A stretch of DNA of 39,428 nucleotides from Gammaproteobacteria bacterium (GTDB lineage: Bacteria > Pseudomonadota > Gammaproteobacteria > UBA5861). Below are positions 1 through 28,401 of this stretch, one piece after another. Positions within the stretch are counted from its first letter, which is position 1, and each line of letters opens with the position of its first letter. The stretch spans positions 1 through 39,428 of the forward strand of contig JAKSCV010000080.1 in NCBI GenBank assembly GCA_022360445.1. Direction: 5' to 3'. The position numbers were made by a program, and so were the translations under genes. Under the pieces are notes generated by a model. The model was not told the DNA's origin and did no database searches. It saw only the letters and a list, made by a program, of their open reading frames with translations.

Positions 1-760
1 CCGTTCGCATCAACGCCGTATGATAGCGACGATAACAGCCAGCCACTTCTAAAAACACGTGTTCTCCAGGCTGCACAATTCGCCCTTCCCACGAAGCGTG
101 ACCGATCATGGTTCGCGGGCCTGATGTGACATAGGGCATAACGGCCGGCGCTTCACCACCGGCCTTAAACATGGCGGCACTGATTTCGGCACCGATTTCA
201 TTTTCTGAAACGCCGGCTCTGCACGCTTCTATGCCGGCTTTCATGGCGGCCTCCGTGGCGATGGATGCCTTGCGCATGACCTCCAGTTCGGCATCTGACT
301 TACAGATGCGCCCTTCTTCAACAATCCCGAAACAGTCCATCAACTTGGCTTCGGTCAATGTGGTGTGGATTACGTCTTGTTGATAAGCCGGGAAGAAATA
401 ACTGTTACGTTCATAGCCGATTCGTTTTTTCGCCAAATCAAACTCGCGCAAGGAATCCACTAACATTTGAACCGCGTCACCGGTATCGGGATAAGGCCGC
501 GTCAGCTCCACCCAAGTTCGGGCAAAAATATTTGACTCTTCCATCGCCCGCGTAATCATAAAAGGCTCACGCTCAAGCGGAACCACCAACGCCTGGAAGA
601 ATGAATAGCCCGTGGTTTGATAATCCGTTAAATACATAATGTTTTCGGGATCGGTAATCACCACGGCATCCAGGCAACGTTGTTGTATACGTTCGCGTAG
701 CTCGGCGATTCGCCGTTCGTATTCCTCGAAGGCGAAAGTCATGTCTTCGCGCTTATTCAT
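1..760 (-). CDS. doeA: Ectoine hydrolase DoeA (partial, C-terminus beyond left edge)
   Basis: Reading leftward from the ATG at 760, the frame stays open to the window edge and gives about 253 N-terminal residues of a roughly 400-residue M24-family protein. It has a creatinase/prolidase-like N-terminal domain (PENIMYLTDYQTTGY, then FQALVVPLEREPFMITR) leading into the pita-bread domain (ICKSDAELEVMRKA, then PYVTSGPRTMIGHASWEGR). DoeA opens the ectoine ring hydrolytically to give N-acetyl-diaminobutyrate, the first step of ectoine degradation in the cytoplasm. The start overlaps the doeD stop (ATGA), so the two are translationally coupled. An in-frame ATG at 743 is an alternative start. The metal-binding residues of the C-terminal half lie outside the window. 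The family call rests on the visible N-terminal half plus the neighbours doeD and doeB2; a generic Xaa-Pro aminopeptidase is the main alternative. Confidence 0.8.
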   Translation of the reverse strand, partial: MNKREDMTFAFEEYERRIAELRERIQQRCLDAVVITDPENIMYLTDYQTTGYSFFQALVVPLEREPFMITRAMEESNIFARTWVELTRPYPDTGDAVQMLVDSLREFDLAKKRIGYERNSYFFPAYQQDVIHTTLTEAKLMDCFGIVEEGRICKSDAELEVMRKASIATEAAMKAGIEACRAGVSENEIGAEISAAMFKAGGEAPAVMPYVTSGPRTMIGHASWEGRIVQPGEHVFLEVAGCYRRYHTALMRT

Positions 761-2061
761 GCCCCCTCCAAATTGCTCAACTGGTTCTGAACGGCGTTAA
801 CGACGATTGCCAGCCCTTGTTGTAAATCCTCATCGGGAATGGTTAACGGTGGAATGAGCTTCACAACACTACCCCCGGTGCCGCAAGCCCCCAGTAGTAA
901 GCCATCGCTAAAACATTGCTCCACGATTGCCTTGGCAATATCACCATTGCCCACATCAATCCCCTGAATCATGCCTTTACCACGAATTTGCACAGTGGCT
1001 TTAACGCCACTGGGGGTTTGGGTGACCTGCTGAGTGAGTGGCGAGAGCGCTTGTTCCATGCTTTCGGTTTTTTCCCCCACAGACTGCATCAATTCATCAT
1101 TCTCAAAGTAACCCAATGCTTCGCTCCCGGCGACAAATGACAGGGATTGACCACGAAATGTGCCGGTATGCTCACCAGGGGACCAGTGCTTATCATGTTC
1201 AGGCTTCACCAGATTCATCGCCAACGGGGTGCCCATTCCCCCCAGTCCTTTGGCAAGGCATACGATATCAGGGTCAACATCGTAATCATCAAAACTAAAG
1301 AAGGAACCGGTTCGCCCCATTCCTACCTGAATATCATCGAGGATCAGCAAGGCACCAATATCCCTCGCAAGTCGGCCTAACTCTTCCAACCAAGGTTTCT
1401 GAGCGACATTGACGCCCCCCTCCGCCTGCACCACTTCGACGAGAAATGCGGCGGGCAGCGTTAAGCCCGAAGAACTATCCTGGTACTGTGCCCGCAGGTA
1501 TTTCAGATCTTCTAGGCCACCCCCCAAATTACTGGCAATGCCTTCCTGCTCACTGCCGAAGGGCCGGTGGCTGACATGGTTTAGGGGCACACCTGCGGCA
1601 CCTCTGAAATAGCTGTTTGCCGTTGCGGCAAGCGAACCGAGGGTCATACCGTGAAAACCATGATTGAAGGCAACAATTTCCTGCCGGTTTGTCACTCTGC
1701 GTGCCAGTTTCATTGCGGCTTCGACGGCATTGGTTCCAGTCGGCCCAACGAACTGCATGAGGTGTGGCATGTTTCGCGGTTCGAGTACGACGCGGGTAAA
1801 GCGTTCCATAAAATCGCGCTTGGCCGTCGTACTCATATCCAAACTGTGGGTGACGCCATTACTTTGAATATATTTCACGACAGCTTCGGTCATCCGCGTA
1901 TTATTATGACCAAAATTCAAAACCCCGGCACCGGCAAAGAAATCGATATATTCATTGCCCTGCTCATCGATCTGTCGAGCATTTATGGCTTTGTCAAAGA
2001 CCGTAGGGTATACGCGACAATAGGCTCGTAGATTAGATTCTCGTTGTTCAAATATACTCAT
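757..2061 (-). CDS. doeD: Diaminobutyrate aminotransferase of ectoine catabolism (DoeD/EctB-like)
   Basis: This 434-residue class III PLP-dependent aminotransferase is close in pattern to EctB/DoeD: FFAGAGVLNFGHNN near residue 42, VGPTGTNAVEAAMKLAR near 105, the PLP-contacting DDIQVGMGRTG near 242, and the Schiff-base lysine K271 in CLAKGLGG. The expected reaction is transfer of an amino group from L-2,4-diaminobutyrate to 2-oxoglutarate, giving aspartate semialdehyde and glutamate. The biosynthetic enzyme EctB has the same fold, but ectA and ectC are absent here while doeA (overlapping downstream) and doeB2 (upstream) are present, so a catabolic role is inferred. The start at 2061 is preceded by a good Shine-Dalgarno (GGAG, 7 nt spacing). 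The 323 bp separating it from doeB2 leave room for a separate promoter. Confidence 0.85.
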   Translation of the reverse strand: MSIFEQRESNLRAYCRVYPTVFDKAINARQIDEQGNEYIDFFAGAGVLNFGHNNTRMTEAVVKYIQSNGVTHSLDMSTTAKRDFMERFTRVVLEPRNMPHLMQFVGPTGTNAVEAAMKLARRVTNRQEIVAFNHGFHGMTLGSLAATANSYFRGAAGVPLNHVSHRPFGSEQEGIASNLGGGLEDLKYLRAQYQDSSSGLTLPAAFLVEVVQAEGGVNVAQKPWLEELGRLARDIGALLILDDIQVGMGRTGSFFSFDDYDVDPDIVCLAKGLGGMGTPLAMNLVKPEHDKHWSPGEHTGTFRGQSLSFVAGSEALGYFENDELMQSVGEKTESMEQALSPLTQQVTQTPSGVKATVQIRGKGMIQGIDVGNGDIAKAIVEQCFSDGLLLGACGTGGSVVKLIPPLTIPDEDLQQGLAIVVNAVQNQLSNLEGA

Positions 2062-2384: not shown

Positions 2385-3572
2385 TTATTGACAATCTGAG
2401 ATGACAGGCAAGCCAACCAGACGCGAATATAACCTCAGCACTTTCTCTATTAACTTGTCGTTAAAGTCATAATAGGCACTATGACAAGGATAATGATGAT
2501 TTTCTCCATCATCGGCTCCAATCAAAGCATAGGCCCCGGGTATCTTTTCAAGGTAGTAGCTAAAATCCTCCGACGCCATCACAGGAAGTAAAATGTTGTT
2601 ATCCAGACTCTCCGCACCGCCATCTGCTAACCAACAGTCACGAACCTGCTTGGCCGCACTGGGATGATTAATGGTCGCTTCATAGCGGGGATGGATATGC
2701 ACTTCACATTCAACACCATAGGCACGCGCAGTCGCCTCGCTAATGTCGCGAATGAGGGTATTGATATGTTCTTTTGTTTGCCGCTCAGGCACCCGAATAC
2801 TGCCTCCTATATGAGCGTGATCCGGGATCGTGGTTGCACCACTAGGGGCTTCGATGGAGGTGATACTGAGTACCGCGGGTTTCTGCGGTGCAATGCGACG
2901 ACTCACGGCTTGTTGTAAGTTCAAGGTAATCGCAGCAGCGGCTAATACAGGATCGCGACATAATTCAGGCTGACTGGCATGGCCTCCTCGACCTTTGAGG
3001 TTAATTTCAAAAGTGCCATTACCACACATGACGATACTATCCGGACAGACCAACTTTCCATAGGGAATGGCCGGCCAGTTATGCCAACCGTAAATCACAT
3101 CCACGCCGTCCAATGCGCCATCCTCAATCATCGCTTTGGCGCCGTGTCCGCCTTCTTCGGCGGGCTGGAAAAGCAAAGATACCGGCCCCTTAAGTTGTTT
3201 CTCGTGGGCGTTAAGCCAAACCGCTGTAGCCATCAATGTGGCGGTATGACCATCGTGACCACAGGCGTGCATACAGCCTTCCTTTAGCGATTTCCAGGGA
3301 CGATTGCTTTGCTCGGCAATGGGTAACGCATCAATATCACCGCGCAACGCAATATGCTGGCCGCTAGCAGCGCCATTAAAACGAGCAACGGTGCCGGTGT
3401 CGGCGCAGGGCCTCCAGCTAATGTCATTGTCGGTTAGGTATTTCCTAATTCGCTCAGCAGTTGCCTTTTCCTCCCAACTTAACTCAGGATGGCGGTGTAA
3501 CTCACGGCGAAAGTGTTTGGCTTGTTCAAGCGTGTCATACCACTGTTTTTCCATAGCTCTTTCCATTTTCAT
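2385..3572 (-). CDS. doeB2: N-alpha-acetyl-L-2,4-diaminobutyrate deacetylase DoeB2 (M20 family)
   Basis: This is a 395-residue M20-family amidohydrolase. Visible features are the N-terminal HRHPELSWEE typical of the hippurate hydrolase/IAA-amino-acid hydrolase branch, the metal-site segment MHACGHDGHTA (H102, C104, H106), the catalytic PAEEGGHGA (E139/E140), GRGGHASQP in the lid domain, and SEDFSYY near the C-terminus. The M20-type DoeB2 replaces or supplements the aspartoacylase-like DoeB in many ectoine degraders, releasing acetate from acetyl-diaminobutyrate so that DoeD can use the product. Assignment rests on family plus the adjacent doeD-doeA; without them it would only be an M20 amidohydrolase. 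The start may be 3572, or 3554, which has the better-placed GGAAAG ribosome-binding site. It is first in the doe gene set, with the 3702-3767 repeat upstream. Confidence 0.78.
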   Translation of the reverse strand: MKMERAMEKQWYDTLEQAKHFRRELHRHPELSWEEKATAERIRKYLTDNDISWRPCADTGTVARFNGAASGQHIALRGDIDALPIAEQSNRPWKSLKEGCMHACGHDGHTATLMATAVWLNAHEKQLKGPVSLLFQPAEEGGHGAKAMIEDGALDGVDVIYGWHNWPAIPYGKLVCPDSIVMCGNGTFEINLKGRGGHASQPELCRDPVLAAAAITLNLQQAVSRRIAPQKPAVLSITSIEAPSGATTIPDHAHIGGSIRVPERQTKEHINTLIRDISEATARAYGVECEVHIHPRYEATINHPSAAKQVRDCWLADGGAESLDNNILLPVMASEDFSYYLEKIPGAYALIGADDGENHHYPCHSAYYDFNDKLIEKVLRLYSRLVGLPVISDCQ

Positions 3573-3701
3573 TTCTTGATTCCATTTTTAACCTTGGAAC
3601 CACATTTGTTGGAGAAAACTGACCGCTTAGCTGACGTATTATTAGCCAAGAACAATCTTAAAACCTATGCAGACCTTGACTAAAAAGAGAGTTAACCTGA
3701 T

Positions 3702-3767
3702 TTGAAAGTATACCCAGTTACCACCAATAAAATATTGAAAGTATGCGCAGTTACGAATAATAAAATG
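3702..3767. repeat. Two-copy 33-bp tandem repeat upstream of doeB2
   Basis: Two abutting 33-bp units, 3702-3734 and 3735-3767, both begin TTGAAAGTAT, contain CAGTTAC at the same offset, and end with AATAAAAT plus one base. They agree at 27 of 33 positions by eye. They lie 130-195 bp upstream of doeB2, in the 282-bp gap after the flavoprotein gene. A 33-bp period is close to three helical turns, so two bound regulators would sit on the same DNA face. The flanking gap (3573-3854) shows nothing else recognisable. Confidence 0.7.
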
Positions 3768-3854
3768 AACAACAAGCTTAGGTGTGATGGATTAAAAACT
3801 CAAGTCAGCGAGTGGGCCATGTGGGATTGTCCGCTTTATTATTAAATACAAAGG

Positions 3855-5063
3855 CTATACATGCCCAGCCGCCGCCACCGCACTGGCCCAAGCCCACTGA
3901 AAGTTAAAGCCGCCCAAGTGTCCTGTAACATCCAGTACTTCGCCAATAAAGTACAACCCCGGATGTGATTTCACCTCCATGGTTTTGGAGGACACTTCAT
4001 CGGTATCCACCCCACCCAGTGCGACTTCAGCGGTGCGATAGCCTTCCGTTCCCGAAGGCTTCAAGCGCCACTGATGCAACTGTTGTGCGATCATATCCAT
4101 ATTAGCACCACTCAACTGTGCCAGTGTGTAAGCCATTAACGCCGGATGGTTCTGCTCCAGCCATAACACAGCAAACTTCTGGGTAAAGTGTTCGGCCAGC
4201 CAGTTTTTCAGGCTGACTTTCGGGCGCAGATGCTGTTGTTCACGCAGTAGCTTTTCCAGATTTTCGGACGGTAACAAATTGATTTGAATCTCATCCCCTT
4301 CATTCCAATATAAAGAAATCTGTAGCATCGCTGGGCCACTTAAGCCGCGGTGAGTAAACAGCAAATCATCACTGAAACTCTGCCCATTACAGCTAACAGA
4401 TATTGCTAACGATGTTCCTGATAATGACTCGCACAAGCTTTTATTGTGATCTGTCGTCACAAACGGAACTAACGCGGCGCGGGTTGGATAGACCTTTAAG
4501 CCGAACTGGCGGGCAACATCATAGCCAAACCCAGATGCGCCCAGAGTGGGAATGGATGGGCCACCGGTCGCCACCACCAACGATTGACATTGTACTTTGC
4601 CGGATGAAGTTGACACTTGGTAACGCATGCCAGCAGCATCGTCACTGATCAAGGCTTCAATTTGCTCAATCGAGGTTTTTAGCTGCACCTGCGCACCCAC
4701 TTGCGCACATTCATCCAGCAACATATTCAGGATATCGCTGGCTTTGTGATCACAAAATAGCTGACCCTCTTTTTTCTCATGATAAGGAATGCCGTGCTTA
4801 TCAACCAATGCAATAAAGTCCCACTGGGTGTAACGACTCAGGGCAGATTTACAAAAGTGCGGGTTGTGTGACAGGTAGCGCTCGGGTTCGACATAATAGT
4901 TGGTGAAGTTACAACGCGCCCCTCCTGACATCAGAATTTTCTTGCCCGCCTTGTTAGCATGGTCCAATACCAGCACCTGGCGATCGCGCTTTCCCGCTTC
5001 GGCAGCACACATCAGCCCGGCGGCTCCGGCACCCATGATCACAACGTCGTATTTCTGCAGCAT
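3855..5063 (-). CDS. NAD(P)/FAD-dependent oxidoreductase, YhiN/HI0933 (BaiN-like) family
   Basis: This 402-residue flavoprotein has an N-terminal Rossmann FAD-binding motif (VVIMGAGAAGLMCA, residues 8-21), the family signature AGKKILMSGGARCNFTN near residue 40, a second nucleotide-contact region LVVATGGPSIPTLGASGFGYD, and the C-terminal block GLYFIGEVLDVTGHLGGFNFQWAW that closes the FAD site. This matches the HI0933/YhiN family, which is widespread and mostly of unknown substrate; the related BaiN acts in bile-acid reduction in clostridia, which is not implied here. Length is normal for the family. The ribosome-binding site before the ATG at 5063 is weak. It reads in the same direction as the doe genes, but 282 bp and a repeat separate them, so co-transcription is uncertain. 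Confidence 0.85.
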   Translation of the reverse strand: MLQKYDVVIMGAGAAGLMCAAEAGKRDRQVLVLDHANKAGKKILMSGGARCNFTNYYVEPERYLSHNPHFCKSALSRYTQWDFIALVDKHGIPYHEKKEGQLFCDHKASDILNMLLDECAQVGAQVQLKTSIEQIEALISDDAAGMRYQVSTSSGKVQCQSLVVATGGPSIPTLGASGFGYDVARQFGLKVYPTRAALVPFVTTDHNKSLCESLSGTSLAISVSCNGQSFSDDLLFTHRGLSGPAMLQISLYWNEGDEIQINLLPSENLEKLLREQQHLRPKVSLKNWLAEHFTQKFAVLWLEQNHPALMAYTLAQLSGANMDMIAQQLHQWRLKPSGTEGYRTAEVALGGVDTDEVSSKTMEVKSHPGLYFIGEVLDVTGHLGGFNFQWAWASAVAAAGHV

Positions 5064-8898: not shown

Positions 8899-9761
8899 TT
8901 GAGCCATAATAATACAGTGCTATCACAATTGCTAAAACTATTACTGAGACATGAATTTGAAACGCTGTCAAAACAGCATCATTCTGGGCGTTCATTCCGT
9001 ACGGCTTCTCGCTGGTGCCAATTTGTAACCTTAGTCATGGCCCAATTATCGGGAAGAAGTAGTTTACGAGATATTGTTGATAATATGGCGGCTCAATCTC
9101 ATCGCTTGTATCACTTAGGAGCTACAAAATTATCACGTTCTAATCTATCTCGAATTAATGAAGAGAAGCCTTATCAGCTTTATGAAGCGCTATTTGGCAA
9201 ACTGCTTGCTCGATGCCAGGGAGTAGTGCCTGGACATACCTTCGGTTTCTCAAACCCACTTTATTCCTTGGATGCAACAACGATTGATTTGTGTTTATCC
9301 GTTTTTCCTTGGGCAGAGTTTCGCTCAACAAAAGGGGCCGTTAAGTTGCACGTTGGCTTAAATCATTCTGGGTACTTGCCCGAATTTGTCACGGTAACGA
9401 ATGGAAAACAACATGACGTTACAGCAGGTAGAGCCATGAAATTTCCCAAAGGCAGTATTGTTGTTATCGACAAAGGTTATAACGACTACGAATGGTATAA
9501 AAGCCTTTCAGATCAAGGTGTTTCCTTTGTAACTCGACAAAAAAGCAACGCAAATATCGGGTAGTTGAGCGTAAAGAAGTCATCAAATCAAAAGGAATCA
9601 CTTCGGATCAAATCATTGAATTCACTGGCGCTCAAACCGCTAAAAAATGTCCAATTAAACTTCGTAGAGCTGGTTATCAAGACAGCGAAACGGGCGAGCA
9701 CTATGTGTTTTTAACGAATCAATTTAAGGAACGTCTGATTAATCGACCAAAAACACCATAA
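8899..9761 (+). pseudogene. IS4-family transposase remnant (frameshifted and 3'-truncated)
   Basis: A TTG start at 8899 opens a 221-residue frame typical of an IS4-family transposase: SHNNTVLSQLLKLLLRHEFE, MAQLSGRSSLRDIVDNM, YSLDATTIDLCLSVFPWAEFR (first DDE aspartate) and IVVIDKGYNDYEWY (second Asp region). The frame stops at 9564, but after a one-base shift near 9552 the protein continues: YRVVERKEV, ITSDQIIEF, GYQDSETGEHYVFLTNQFK, NRPKTP, stopping at 9761. The expected C-terminal third with the catalytic glutamate (WQIE-LFFKWIKQ type) is missing, because the sequence switches to IS5-type DNA. It is inactive unless complemented by a full copy elsewhere. A transposase rather than a host gene is certain; the exact IS name is not recognised. 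Confidence 0.85.
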
Positions 9762-11165: not shown

Positions 11166-12590
11166 TCAAGAAGCCGCCAGCGTTGAAGTAAACTCGCCCA
11201 GCTGTTTGAGTGCCGATTCCACCTGGGTGTTCCACTGCACGGCACTGTTTAAACGGATAAAGTGTTCGTATTTTTGCCGAGCAGAGAATATCTGCCCGGG
11301 GGCAATACTGATCCGGGCTTCCAGCGCCAGGCGGTACAATTCCAACGCATTGACTTGAATAGGCAATTCCACCCAGATTACAAAGCCTCCTTTGGGTTGG
11401 GAAACGCGCGTGCCCTCAGGGAAGTAATGTGTGATTAAATCCAGCATGCGGTGCACCTGGCGCTGGTATTGGGAACGAACTCTGCGTAAAAACCGGTCGT
11501 GATTGGAGTGTTGCAAATAATGCGCGAGGGCCCGCTGGGATAAGGTGGGTGCTGATAGATTGTTGGCGTATTTCAAAAATTCTATCTTTTCCCGGTGTTG
11601 GTGGGAAAACACCCAGCCTACCCGCAAACCCGGTGCCACCGTTTTGGAAAAAGAACTGCAGTAGAGCACCTGATCTTGGGTATCAAATGCCTTAAAGGCA
11701 ACAGGCCGATCACCTGAAAAACCGAGGTCGCCGTAGATGTCATCTTCAATCAGCGGCACCTGGTGTCGCTCCAGCAAGTCAACCAATGCTGCTTTGCGGC
11801 CATCGCTCATGCAATAACCCAGCGGATTGGAAAAGTTCGATACCGCAACGCAGGCCTTGATTTGCCATTGCTCAAGTGCCATTTCAAGCGCACCCAGGTT
11901 GAGCCCTTCAACCGGATCGGTCGGGATTTCCAGTGCCTTCATGCCCAGGTAGTTAATCGCTTGCAACAAACCATAAAAAGTGGGGGACTCCACCGCGACA
12001 ACGTCGCCCGGTGCGCCGACTGCTTGCAAGGCGAGAATGATCGCTTCCTGGCAACCGGCAGTGATCACGATATCATCCGGTCTGGCTTCGCATCCTGCCA
12101 TAACCAGCCGTTTGGCAATTTGCTGCCTCAATTTGATATGCCCAGGCGGAAATTCATAGTAACTGCTGTGCTCCTTTTGCCGCCGTGAAACATGGGCCAC
12201 CGATCGGCCAATGGCGTCAGTCGGCAAAAAACACTCATCTGGCACGGCTGTGCTGAGCTGCAAAATATCAGCATGATGGCTGGCTTTGACAAGGTTCAAC
12301 GCCAGCTGCTGGCTGGTGACGGGCTGGGGAATCAGGTCTGGCTGAGAGGCCGTCGGCAGCGTGATGTGCGCAAGTGTCACCGGTTTGACGTAAAAACCGG
12401 ACCGCGATTGTGCTTCGATCAGCCCTTCAGTTTCCAAAAGCGCCAAGGCGCTTAATACCGTGGAGATGCTCACTCCCAGACCGGCTTTGAGTTTACGGAT
12501 TCCCGGCAACCGCTCACCAGGTGGATAAACCCCTCGGGCAATTTGACCGCGCAGCTGGCGGGCGATTTGCTCATACAATTTTTCAGGCAT
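11166..12590 (-). CDS. MocR-type transcriptional regulator (GntR HTH + aminotransferase-like domain)
   Basis: This protein of about 474 residues (start chosen at 12590, MPEKLYEQIARQ) has a GntR winged helix at the N-terminus (QIARGVYPPGERLPGIRKLK, VSISTVLSALALLETEGLI) and a fold type I aminotransferase domain (GHIKLRQQIAKRL, ITAGCQEAIILALQAV, SNFSNPLGYCMSDGRK, IEDDIYGDLGF, and the PLP-lysine segment YCSSFSKTVAPGLRVGW). MocR proteins use PLP as co-effector and usually control a neighbouring amine or amino-acid gene. Here the divergent aminotransferase operon is the obvious target. The frame extends upstream to 12650, but that stretch holds operator-like CTGTACC motifs and lacks a ribosome-binding site. 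EnuR, the ectoine-utilisation regulator, belongs to the same family, but the gene lies 7.6 kb from the doe genes with IS debris between, so that link is only a possibility. Confidence 0.85.
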   Translation of the reverse strand: MPEKLYEQIARQLRGQIARGVYPPGERLPGIRKLKAGLGVSISTVLSALALLETEGLIEAQSRSGFYVKPVTLAHITLPTASQPDLIPQPVTSQQLALNLVKASHHADILQLSTAVPDECFLPTDAIGRSVAHVSRRQKEHSSYYEFPPGHIKLRQQIAKRLVMAGCEARPDDIVITAGCQEAIILALQAVGAPGDVVAVESPTFYGLLQAINYLGMKALEIPTDPVEGLNLGALEMALEQWQIKACVAVSNFSNPLGYCMSDGRKAALVDLLERHQVPLIEDDIYGDLGFSGDRPVAFKAFDTQDQVLYCSSFSKTVAPGLRVGWVFSHQHREKIEFLKYANNLSAPTLSQRALAHYLQHSNHDRFLRRVRSQYQRQVHRMLDLITHYFPEGTRVSQPKGGFVIWVELPIQVNALELYRLALEARISIAPGQIFSARQKYEHFIRLNSAVQWNTQVESALKQLGEFTSTLAAS

Positions 12591-12615
12591 CGGTACACAT
12601 ACTTCAATGATCGCC

Positions 12616-12678
12616 GGTACAGTTGGCATTTCAGATAAAACTGTACCCATTAAAAATAAAAATTCTAGCTCTGTACCC
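12616..12678. promoter_or_regulatory. Three CTGTACC motifs: candidate MocR operator
   Basis: GGTACAG at 12616-12622 is the inverted form of CTGTACCC, which occurs at 12641-12648 and again exactly 30 bp later at 12671-12678. All lie between the divergent regulator and aminotransferase genes. MocR-family regulators typically bind mixed direct and inverted short repeats in such positions. The 30-bp (three-turn) spacing of the two direct copies supports a protein-binding function. Confidence 0.6.
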
Positions 12679-12734
12679 TTTTTTTGCAGCCTATTACGAT
12701 TACAACATCAAATCAACGACTTTACGGAAGCATA

Positions 12735-13613
12735 ATGAGCACGACACGATACTGGATAAACGGTCAACATAGGGATGAAGCCGATGCTGTTATTCCTGTC
12801 ACGGATCATGGCCTGCTCTACGGTGATGGTGTTTTTGAGGGCATTCGCTTTTATCAGCGCCAGCCTTTCTACCGGGACGCTCACCTAGAGCGATTGTGGG
12901 ACTCGGCGCAGAGCATTCGGCTGAAGATTCCGAACAGTAGAGCACAGTTATCCGAGGTGATTGACACACTGGTTAAACAATTTCCTGAACCGGAAGGTTA
13001 TATCCGCATTCTGGTCACTCGAGGACGAGGCCCCCTTGGCATTGACCCTAACGAATGTGGTACTCCCAATGTCATTCTGATTGTTGATCAACTCAACATG
13101 TTGGATGAAACGACCCGCCAGTCCGGTATTCGCACCATCATCGCCTCCACCCGGCGTATTCCCTCAGATAGCTTGGACTCACGGATTAAAAGCCTCAACT
13201 ACCTCAACCAGATTCTGGCCCGAATGGAAGCCCAGCAGGCAGGTGTGGATGAAGCTATTTTGCTCAATCATTCGGGTTACATCAGCGAGGCTTCGGTCGA
13301 AAATCTGTTCATTGTGAAACAAGGCATGTTGCTGACTCCACCTGCCACGGACGGCGCATTGGATGGGATTACTCGCCGTGTCGTCATGCAACTGGCCACC
13401 CATCGCTCGATTCCTGTATCTGAAAAATCACTCACACCCTACGATTTATACACCGCAGATGAGTGCTTCTTGACCGGTACCGGTGCCGAATTAATACCCG
13501 TTCGCGAAGTCGATGGACGGCTCATCGGCAAACCCGGGCCTGTTTTTCATACCTTGCTGGGCGCCTTTTTAGAGGAAACAGGGCTCCACCAGCAGATGGC
13601 CCGTAGAATATGA
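12735..13613 (+). CDS. Class IV PLP aminotransferase (branched-chain/IlvE-like)
   Basis: This 292-residue fold type IV aminotransferase starts at 12735, where ACGGAAG lies four bases before the ATG; the frame itself is open from 12684. Signature elements are VTDHGLLYGDGVFEGIRFY (residues 22-40), GYIRILVTRGRGPLGID (88-104), the PLP lysine K152 in SRIKSLNYLNQILA, GYISEASVENLFIVK and ECFLTGTGAELIPV. The VFEGIR motif and substrate-pocket pattern favour a branched-chain amino-acid aminotransferase, interconverting Leu/Ile/Val with their 2-oxoacids. D-amino-acid transaminase and aminodeoxychorismate lyase share the fold and cannot be excluded. It is divergent from a MocR regulator and overlaps the next membrane-protein gene by ATGA, so the three form one unit. 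Confidence 0.8.
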   Translation: MSTTRYWINGQHRDEADAVIPVTDHGLLYGDGVFEGIRFYQRQPFYRDAHLERLWDSAQSIRLKIPNSRAQLSEVIDTLVKQFPEPEGYIRILVTRGRGPLGIDPNECGTPNVILIVDQLNMLDETTRQSGIRTIIASTRRIPSDSLDSRIKSLNYLNQILARMEAQQAGVDEAILLNHSGYISEASVENLFIVKQGMLLTPPATDGALDGITRRVVMQLATHRSIPVSEKSLTPYDLYTADECFLTGTGAELIPVREVDGRLIGKPGPVFHTLLGAFLEETGLHQQMARRI

Positions 13614-26994: not shown

Positions 26995-28401
26995 TTAATC
27001 ATCGAGCAAGGCGCGCCTCATATCGGCCAGTATCTGGCACAAATGCGCCATAAATCGGGCCGCTTCAGCACCATCAATCACTCGGTGGTCATAAGAGAGA
27101 TCCAGGGGCAGCATCAAGCGGGGGGTAAATTCCGATCCGTTCCAGACTGGCTGCATTTTTGAGCGGGTTACCCCTAAAATGGCCACTTCAGGCGCATTAA
27201 CCAGCGGTGTGAAGGCTGTCCCCCCGATTCCGCCCAGGCTGGATATACTGATTGAACCGCCTTGCATATCCGCAGGTTTCAACTTTTTGTTACGCGCCCG
27301 CTGGCTAATATCAGCCATCTCTTCTGCAAGCGCATAAATGCTTTTTTGATCCACATCGCGAATGACGGGAACAACCAGGCCGTCTGGTGTATCAACGGCA
27401 ATGCCAATATGACTGTATTTTTTCAGAAACAGGCCATCGCCTTCAGGCGTCAAAGAAGCATTGAATCTGGGGTACGCCTTTAATGTTGACGCTAATGCCT
27501 TGGCGATGAATGCAAGCAGGGTAATACGCAGCCCACGCGCTTCGGCCTCTGGCTTGAGGGACTTTCGAAAGGCTTCTGTCTCGGTGATATCCGCTTCATC
27601 ATGGTGCGTCACAAGAGGAATATTGAGCCAGGCGCGGTGCAAATTTTTGGCCGTCAGCTTTTTAATCCGGCTGAGCTCAATTCGCTCAACAGGCCCAAAC
27701 TGGCTGAAATCAATCGCAGGAATCGGCGGAATGCCTGCCCCTCCAGCGGCGGCTGCGCCTTTGCCCTGACCACCTGCGACACCGACACCCGAAAGCGCCT
27801 GTTTCACAAAAGCCTGTACATCCTCTTTCAGGATTCGCCCTTTCGGACCCGATCCTGTGATCAGCGAAACATCCGCACCCAGCTCGCGGGCAAACCGGCG
27901 AACAGACGGGCTGGCATGCGCCTTTTTAAAGCCGGTTTCATTGATATGCGCCGTGGGTGAGGAACGGGAAGGTGCCGACATGTTGCTAATGGGGTCATTC
28001 TCCGCAGACGAGTCTTGTGTCTCTTCAGGTTGGCTTTTAGGAGGCGTTGGTGGTGAGGGTTCTGGCTTAATGGTTTCTTGCGACGGGGACTCGTCGGTAT
28101 CAGACTCAGACTCAGACGCAGACTCAGCCTCAGACTCAGACTCAGACTGGCTGGGTACCACCTCGGATTCCAACCGGAGGATAATGTCACCTTCAGACAC
28201 TTTATCACCCAGTTTGACCATGATTTCGCGCACTTGACCACTGACAGGTGACGGAATTTCCATCGTCGCCTTATCGCTTTCAAGCGTAATCAGCGAGGCT
28301 TCTAATTCAACCGCATCGCCCACAGAGACCAGTATTTCGATGACTTCAACATCGCTCGCATCACCAATATCCGGCACATGTACATCAATCAGTTCAGACA
28401 T
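26995..28401 (-). CDS. aceF: Pyruvate dehydrogenase E2, dihydrolipoamide acetyltransferase
   Basis: This 468-residue E2 core moves the acetyl group from lipoamide to CoA. It has a single lipoyl domain (residues 1-78, K44 in ESDKATMEIPSP), a long linker that is first Ser/Glu/Asp-rich (about 84-110) then Pro-rich, a peripheral subunit-binding domain (HASPSVRRFARELG to GRILKEDVQAFV, 162-200), and the acetyltransferase domain from about 235 to the end with the catalytic H439 in LSYDHRVIDGAEAARF. E. coli AceF has three lipoyl domains; one here plus one on E3 means two per E1/E2/E3 unit. It lies 28 bp after aceE, so the two are co-transcribed. The acidic linker is unusual compared with the Ala/Pro linkers of enterobacteria. 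Confidence 0.93.
   Translation of the reverse strand: MSELIDVHVPDIGDASDVEVIEILVSVGDAVELEASLITLESDKATMEIPSPVSGQVREIMVKLGDKVSEGDIILRLESEVVPSQSESESEAESASESESDTDESPSQETIKPEPSPPTPPKSQPEETQDSSAENDPISNMSAPSRSSPTAHINETGFKKAHASPSVRRFARELGADVSLITGSGPKGRILKEDVQAFVKQALSGVGVAGGQGKGAAAAGGAGIPPIPAIDFSQFGPVERIELSRIKKLTAKNLHRAWLNIPLVTHHDEADITETEAFRKSLKPEAEARGLRITLLAFIAKALASTLKAYPRFNASLTPEGDGLFLKKYSHIGIAVDTPDGLVVPVIRDVDQKSIYALAEEMADISQRARNKKLKPADMQGGSISISSLGGIGGTAFTPLVNAPEVAILGVTRSKMQPVWNGSEFTPRLMLPLDLSYDHRVIDGAEAARFMAHLCQILADMRRALLDD
28101..28148 (-). repeat. GACTCA-type hexamer repeats in the aceF linker
   Basis: The plus strand shows a run of imperfect GACTCA and CAGACT hexamers (with GACGCA and GCCTCA variants). 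It encodes alternating Ser-Glu/Ser-Asp residues of the E2 inter-domain linker on the minus strand. Such simple repeats can change copy number by slippage in multiples of three without breaking the frame. Confidence 0.7.

What the first reader, a model, noticed from the sequence alone, without database searches (positions are those of the whole stretch)
3702..3767. 33-bp tandem repeat ahead of the ectoine-degradation operon
Two abutting, 27/33-identical units lie 130-195 bp upstream of doeB2, with a period of about three helical turns. No gene explains them. Regulators of ectoine use (EnuR, a MocR-type protein) often bind repeated sites, so this may be an inducer-dependent operator. Alternatively it is the scar of a small duplication.
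Basis: partly seen in the sequence, partly recalled or inferred. Interest (0 to 1): 0.5.

Follow-up and report, generated by a model that had tools for sequence, protein, structure and literature searches.

The report
Diverged 33-bp tandem duplication near doeB2
Two adjoining, slightly different copies of a 33-letter stretch lie before a bacterium's ectoine-breakdown genes; the pair is real, and it is most likely an old small duplication, with a private control site as the one serious alternative.

Summary
The repeat is real: units 3702-3734 and 3735-3767 abut head to tail, match at 27 of 33 positions and exceed chance. In 439 kb of this genome (about an eighth, window included) it is the only tandem repeat of period 24-60 at 80% identity or more outside long open frames. 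It lies between a flavoprotein gene and doeB2, upstream of a doeB2-doeD-doeA-doeC operon. The EnuR reading is not supported. No protein in the genome reaches the EnuR/EhuR model's cut-off (best 219.9 bits against 480). The published EnuR operator is an inverted repeat, which the units do not contain. No regulator was found among the neighbouring genes scanned. The paired motif is absent from 368 of 368 other class genomes searched, and 21 other distinct doeB2 loci have no 33-bp-type repeat upstream. The best reading is an old slippage duplication with no shown function. A private direct-repeat operator is not excluded: the spacing suits MocR-type operators, and the one congener held has no DoeB2 match, so the decisive close-relative test could not be made. 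Interest is low.

The parts
3702..3734 (.). repeat unit 1, TTGAAAGTATACCCAGTTACCACCAATAAAATA (nearer doeB2)
3735..3767 (.). repeat unit 2, TTGAAAGTATGCGCAGTTACGAATAATAAAATG; 27/33 identical to unit 1
2385..3572 (-). doeB2, N2-acetyl-diaminobutanoate deacetylase (true start possibly 3554)
   Evidence: NF038260, 653 bits against a cut-off of 550
757..2061 (-). doeD, diaminobutyrate transaminase
   Evidence: NF006733, 585 bits against a cut-off of 438
2..760 (-). 5' part of doeA (ectoine hydrolase), cut by the contig end; the 3' part and a doeC-like aldehyde dehydrogenase gene lie at the end of contig C28
3855..5063 (-). HI0933-like FAD-binding flavoprotein gene; its 3' end bounds the intergenic region
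   Evidence: TIGR00275, PF03486
3655..3682 (-). weak promoter-like match between repeat and doeB2 (TAGTCA-16-TAAGAT, 8 of 12); speculative
   Evidence: below the threshold of the scan
3838..3867 (-). promoter-like match upstream of the repeat (TGGGCA-18-AATAAT, 9 of 12); if real the repeat would lie in the doeB2 leader; speculative
   Evidence: 1 found, 1.1 expected in shuffles

Best explanation
A single 33-bp tandem duplication, most likely by replication slippage, arose in the gap upstream of a doeB2-doeD-doeA-doeC operon and has since drifted to 82% identity. It is peculiar to this lineage as far as could be seen and probably has no function as a repeat, although it may overlap promoter or leader DNA. 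Shown: two abutting head-to-tail copies, above chance, with no second copy found in this genome, and absent from the other doe loci examined. Inferred: origin by slippage, and neutrality.
For: Exactly two abutting copies without indels. As DNA the stretch matches only itself in the genome. The 18-mer core with up to 3 mismatches has 21 matches in the genome against 38 for the reversed control; 2 are the repeat, and of the other 19 I examined 18: all 18 overlap open frames of 100 codons or more. Of 22 other doeB2 loci (21 distinct, since L035 and L045 are identical over 1600 nt), 22 have doeD beside doeB2 and none has a repeat near 33 bp in the 420 nt before the match. 368 of 368 other class genomes lack the paired motif at up to 3 mismatches. 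No stable RNA (z = +1.12), no Rfam match, no coding signal, no plasmid match. Shorter tandem repeats of unrelated sequence do occur before doeB2 elsewhere (14 of 14 at period 15 in L029; weaker ones in L031, L048, L049), as expected of unconstrained DNA.
Against: It is the only tandem repeat of period 24-60 at 80% or more outside long frames in 439 kb, of which 41.7 kb lies outside stop-to-stop frames of 150 codons or more, so such scars are rare here, and this one sits before an operon. Spacing is kept despite 18% divergence. A 20-bp core (TTGAAAGTATnCnCAGTTAC) differs at 2 of 20 sites and the remaining 13 at 4 of 13, a leaning toward a conserved core that is too small to mean anything.
Confidence: 0.57

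Rival explanations
1. A private direct-repeat operator: an unidentified regulator (MocR-type or another that binds same-face direct repeats) binds one box per unit, about three helical turns apart, and controls the doe operon.
For: Position upstream of the operon; spacing of 33 bp; direct boxes two or three helical turns apart are described for MocR-type operators (passages of PMC5320631); the genome holds MocR-like proteins below the EhuR cut-off, one of them in the window at 11166-12650.
Against: No second intergenic copy found among the 18 other near-matches examined; before two MocR genes checked (400 nt each) only one match with 5 mismatches turned up (L054); no repeat near 33 bp at 21 other distinct doeB2 loci, and in 15 loci searched for the motif the only match close before doeB2 is a single 14-mer with 2 mismatches at L029:3932; no regulator among neighbouring genes scanned. 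Related doeBDAC operons of methylotrophs are reported without EnuR and AsnC genes (passages of PMC7192451).
Confidence: 0.35
2. An EnuR operator.
For: Position before doe genes only.
Against: No EnuR over the cut-off; the EnuR motif is an inverted repeat and is absent from the units.
Confidence: 0.03
3. A small protein gene with an 11-residue repeat, read on the + strand (47 aa, 3702-3845).
For: The frame is open and 33 is a multiple of 3.
Against: 287 of 1000 shuffles give a frame as long; no match in 368 of 368 other class genomes at E <= 0.01; four of the five codons that differ between units change the residue.
Confidence: 0.02
4. An EctR (MarR) operator linking ectoine synthesis and breakdown.
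For: The genome has ectoine synthase and a MarR gene divergent from the ect genes.
Against: The spacer before ectA carries TTTAGTGCACTAAA-type palindromes; the doe gap matches that spacer no better than 30 shuffles do (14 of 18 against a shuffle maximum of 15).
Confidence: 0.02

Closest known systems
Short tandem duplications in bacterial intergenic DNA (replication slippage scars; general knowledge)
   Same: two abutting head-to-tail copies without indels, seen in one lineage only, outside genes
   Different: none noted; the single-copy ancestral site could not be seen
MocR-type direct-repeat operators (GabR, TauR, PdxR types; PMC5320631, passages)
   Same: two direct boxes about three helical turns apart, upstream of a catabolic operon
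   Different: no adjacent MocR gene, no second site found, box sequences not compared with published ones, no conservation seen
EnuR/EutR/EhuR operator
   Same: location before ectoine-degradation genes
   Different: EnuR sites are inverted repeats ATTGT-N6-ACAAT; not present in the units; no EnuR over the cut-off in the genome
DoeX (AsnC/Lrp) binding region upstream of doeA in Halomonas elongata
   Same: regulatory region upstream of a doe operon
   Different: no AsnC/Lrp gene in this operon; the DoeX-bound 46-nt fragment is directly before the start codon (passages of PMC3187862), whereas this repeat begins 130 or 148 bp away

Membership tests
EnuR operator | inverted repeat ATTGT-N6-ACAAT | tested here: not met
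   no match within 2 mismatches inside 3702-3767; 19 in the window against 22.6 expected; no inverted repeat inside the units by the scan
EnuR operator | an EnuR/EhuR regulator in the genome | tested here: not met
   best 219.9 bits against a cut-off of 480; 0 of 12 matches over it; genome 97.9% complete; no positive control from this class was run
EnuR operator | binding released by N-alpha-acetyl-diaminobutyrate | not testable with these tools
   needs purified protein
MocR-type direct-repeat operator | two direct boxes two or three helical turns apart | tested here: met
   33-bp spacing; rule from passages of PMC5320631
MocR-type direct-repeat operator | a MocR gene next to the target genes | tested here: not met
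   nearest found is 11166-12650, 7.4 kb away beside a class IV aminotransferase; none among the 9 C28 proteins scanned beside doeC (two frames of 123 and 81 aa there were not scanned)
MocR-type direct-repeat operator | same boxes at other target or autoregulatory sites | tested here: not met
   upstream regions of only two of the MocR genes were checked, one with a single 5-mismatch match
DoeX (AsnC/Lrp) target | doeX gene in the operon | tested here: not met
   two places in the genome match the AsnC HTH at E <= 0.001, window 16503 and C88:23247, neither in the doe operon
Tandem-duplication scar | abutting head-to-tail copies above chance | tested here: met
Tandem-duplication scar | not conserved at orthologous loci | tested here: inconclusive
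   absent at 21 distinct loci, but these are only 55-65% identical in DoeB2
Tandem-duplication scar | single-copy ancestral site in a close relative | not testable with these tools
   the one congener held (G001) has no DoeB2 match at E <= 1e-60 and no flavoprotein match at E <= 0.001

The most novel reading that the evidence does not exclude
The two units are the operator of an unknown, EnuR- and DoeX-independent regulator that controls a doeB2-D-A-C operon for recycling the cell's own ectoine, a circuit for which I know of no named regulator.
Probability: 0.28. Interest if true: 0.35.

Novelty: new member of a known kind. Interest (0 to 1): 0.12.

Why it matters
As a scar it matters little. 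If it were an operator it would be a handle on how doeBDAC operons are controlled. The methanotroph studied in PMC7192451 (passages) is reported to lack EnuR-like and AsnC/Lrp-like genes, yet N-alpha-acetyl-diaminobutyrate appeared in a doeB mutant after osmotic down-shock, so the authors call its ectoine catabolism non-constitutive; how it is controlled is open.

Tried and rejected
EnuR operator: no EnuR over the cut-off, wrong symmetry. DoeX: no gene in the operon. EctR site: no similarity beyond shuffles. Dispersed or mobile repeat: the stretch matches only itself in the genome, no plasmid match (the phage records were not searched); 13 IMG/VR stretches hold a single exact match to the 18-mer, about what I would expect by chance for 16 fixed bases (own estimate; the collection's size in bases was not given), and their contexts were not read. 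RNA element: none. Small ORF: chance. The closest near-match (C88:31350, 1 mismatch) lies inside a 348-aa frame that I read as a PilT-type ATPase (label from recall).

Limits and rows dropped: loci L040 and L041 (37-38% identity) and L003-L005 (34-41%) were left out of the upstream comparison; L035 and L045 are identical over 1600 nt, so 22 loci are 21 distinct. The motif search covered 15 loci, L027-L041, and gave 15 loose rows (4 mismatches to the 18-mer or 2 to the 14-mer), of which only L029:3932 lies within 100 nt before doeB2. L043-L051 were covered by the tandem scan and, as whole genomes, by the pattern. One search covered 22 loci with one Lrp and one MocR query; it found MocR-like frames at L036 and L037 and no Lrp, but L043-L051 have only 1.5-kb flanks. 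One of the 21 hits (C103:506-523) had no locus and was not examined. In 'coding' means overlap with a mechanical open frame of 100 codons or more; of six less certain frames (L012, L014, L015, L016, L017, L019) five carry a Pfam family and L016 (134 aa) none; at L014 the hit straddles the frame's first codons. The background scan covered 439 kb of 3.46 Mb. One search also lists one promoter-like site (chance level) and two terminator-like sites (0.3 expected) around the gap.

Full report
Observation. Two abutting 33-nt units at 3702-3734 and 3735-3767 agree at 27 of 33 positions with no indel. Shuffles of the 282-nt gap never exceeded 21 of 33 at period 33 in 2000 trials. In 400 kb of other stretches of the same genome plus the window (439 kb; 41.7 kb lies outside stop-to-stop frames of 150 codons or more), the scan for period 24-60 at 80% or more found three repeats: this one, outside long frames, and two inside them (L072 and window 28100).

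Setting. The repeat lies in the 282-nt gap between the 3' end of an HI0933-like flavoprotein gene (3855-5063, minus) and the 5' end of doeB2 (2385-3572, minus; NF038260 over its cut-off), followed by doeD (757-2061) and doeA, which is cut by the contig end. The rest of doeA (an M24-family frame) and an aldehyde dehydrogenase gene that I take for doeC lie at the end of contig C28. C28 and C86 overlap by 261 nt at 96% identity; I read this as a strain mixture that broke the assembly. The order is thus doeB2-doeD-doeA-doeC, the doeBDAC order described for halotolerant methanotrophs (passages of PMC7192451). Beyond doeC the proteins scanned are an FKBP-type isomerase, a Na/Pi cotransporter, a DUF1722/desulfurase protein, a flavin reductase, a GST, a pirin and a Host_attach protein; none is a regulator by Pfam, and two short frames were not scanned. 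The genome also has ectoine synthase beside a class III aminotransferase and a GNAT protein, with a divergent MarR gene, which I read as ectR-ectABC-ask; so the organism probably makes ectoine and may use the doe genes for its turnover (inference).

Is it an EnuR site? EnuR operators are inverted repeats ATTGT-N6-ACAAT, and EutR motifs are described as palindromic (passages of PMC8739950; section 12 of PMC5320631). A scan for inverted repeats over the gap (arms 6-8, spacer up to 12) found none inside the repeat. Matches with two mismatches to the EnuR consensus are no commoner in the window than in shuffles, and the one in this gap (3641-3656) lies outside the repeat. No protein in the 97.9%-complete genome passes the EhuR model's cut-off (0 of 12 matches; best 219.9 bits against 480); the 14 control genomes also match without passing it, and I ran no positive control from this class. 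The MocR protein in the window (11166-12650) scores best with the PdxR model, below its cut-off (279.8 against 320). I conclude that EnuR control through this repeat is not supported.

Is it any operator? For: it lies before the operon, and MocR operators with direct boxes two or three turns apart are described (passages of PMC5320631). Against: the 18-mer core has 21 near-matches in the genome against 38 for the reversed control; apart from the repeat itself, 18 of 19 were examined and all 18 overlap open frames of 100 codons or more (Pfam supports five of the six less certain frames checked). No repeat near 33 bp lies before doeB2 at 22 other loci (21 distinct), all of which keep doeD beside doeB2, though shorter unrelated tandem repeats do occur there (L029, L031, L048, L049). 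None of 368 other class genomes has the paired motif with up to 3 mismatches. The loci are only 55-65% identical in DoeB2, so their silence is weak evidence against a site private to this lineage.

Other readings. The repeat is not coding by any sign, not a structured RNA, not a dispersed element and not like the palindromes before ectA. Two promoter-like matches bracket it: one at 3867-3838, which would put the repeat in the leader (at chance level), and a weaker one at 3682-3655, which would put the units at about -54 to -119. Neither is evidence of function.

Verdict. An old, diverged tandem duplication without shown function is the most economical reading (0.57); a private direct-repeat operator of an unknown regulator is the serious rival (0.35). 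Papers: PMC8739950, PMC5924519, PMC3187862 and PMC7192451 were seen as passages, PMC5320631 as passages plus one section; the others only as search listings.

Noticed in passing
window 1-261 and L085 19222-19482: Contigs C86 and C28 overlap within doeA at 96% identity (10 of 261 differ), a sign of mixed strains at the assembly break.
   Followed up: partly
L101 (contig C30) 4014-4132: The spacer between a MarR gene (ectR-like by position) and a GNAT gene (ectA by position) holds a TTTAGTGCACTAAA palindrome with a second AGTACACTAAA-type copy beside it, likely EctR operators.
   Followed up: partly
window 8899-9564: IS4-type transposase frame of 221 aa that matches only profile positions 1-212 of 332: probably a broken insertion sequence.
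   Followed up: no
window 28100-28148: About eight copies of the hexamer TCAGAC inside a long open frame, a coding microsatellite.
   Followed up: no
window 11166-13613: PdxR-like MocR regulator (below the model's cut-off) divergent from a class IV aminotransferase gene; target unknown.
   Followed up: no
L053 (contig C88): Neighbouring Lrp-like frames next to a radical-SAM-like frame, which I recall as a nirDLGH/nirJ-type haem d1 cluster (label from recall).
   Followed up: no
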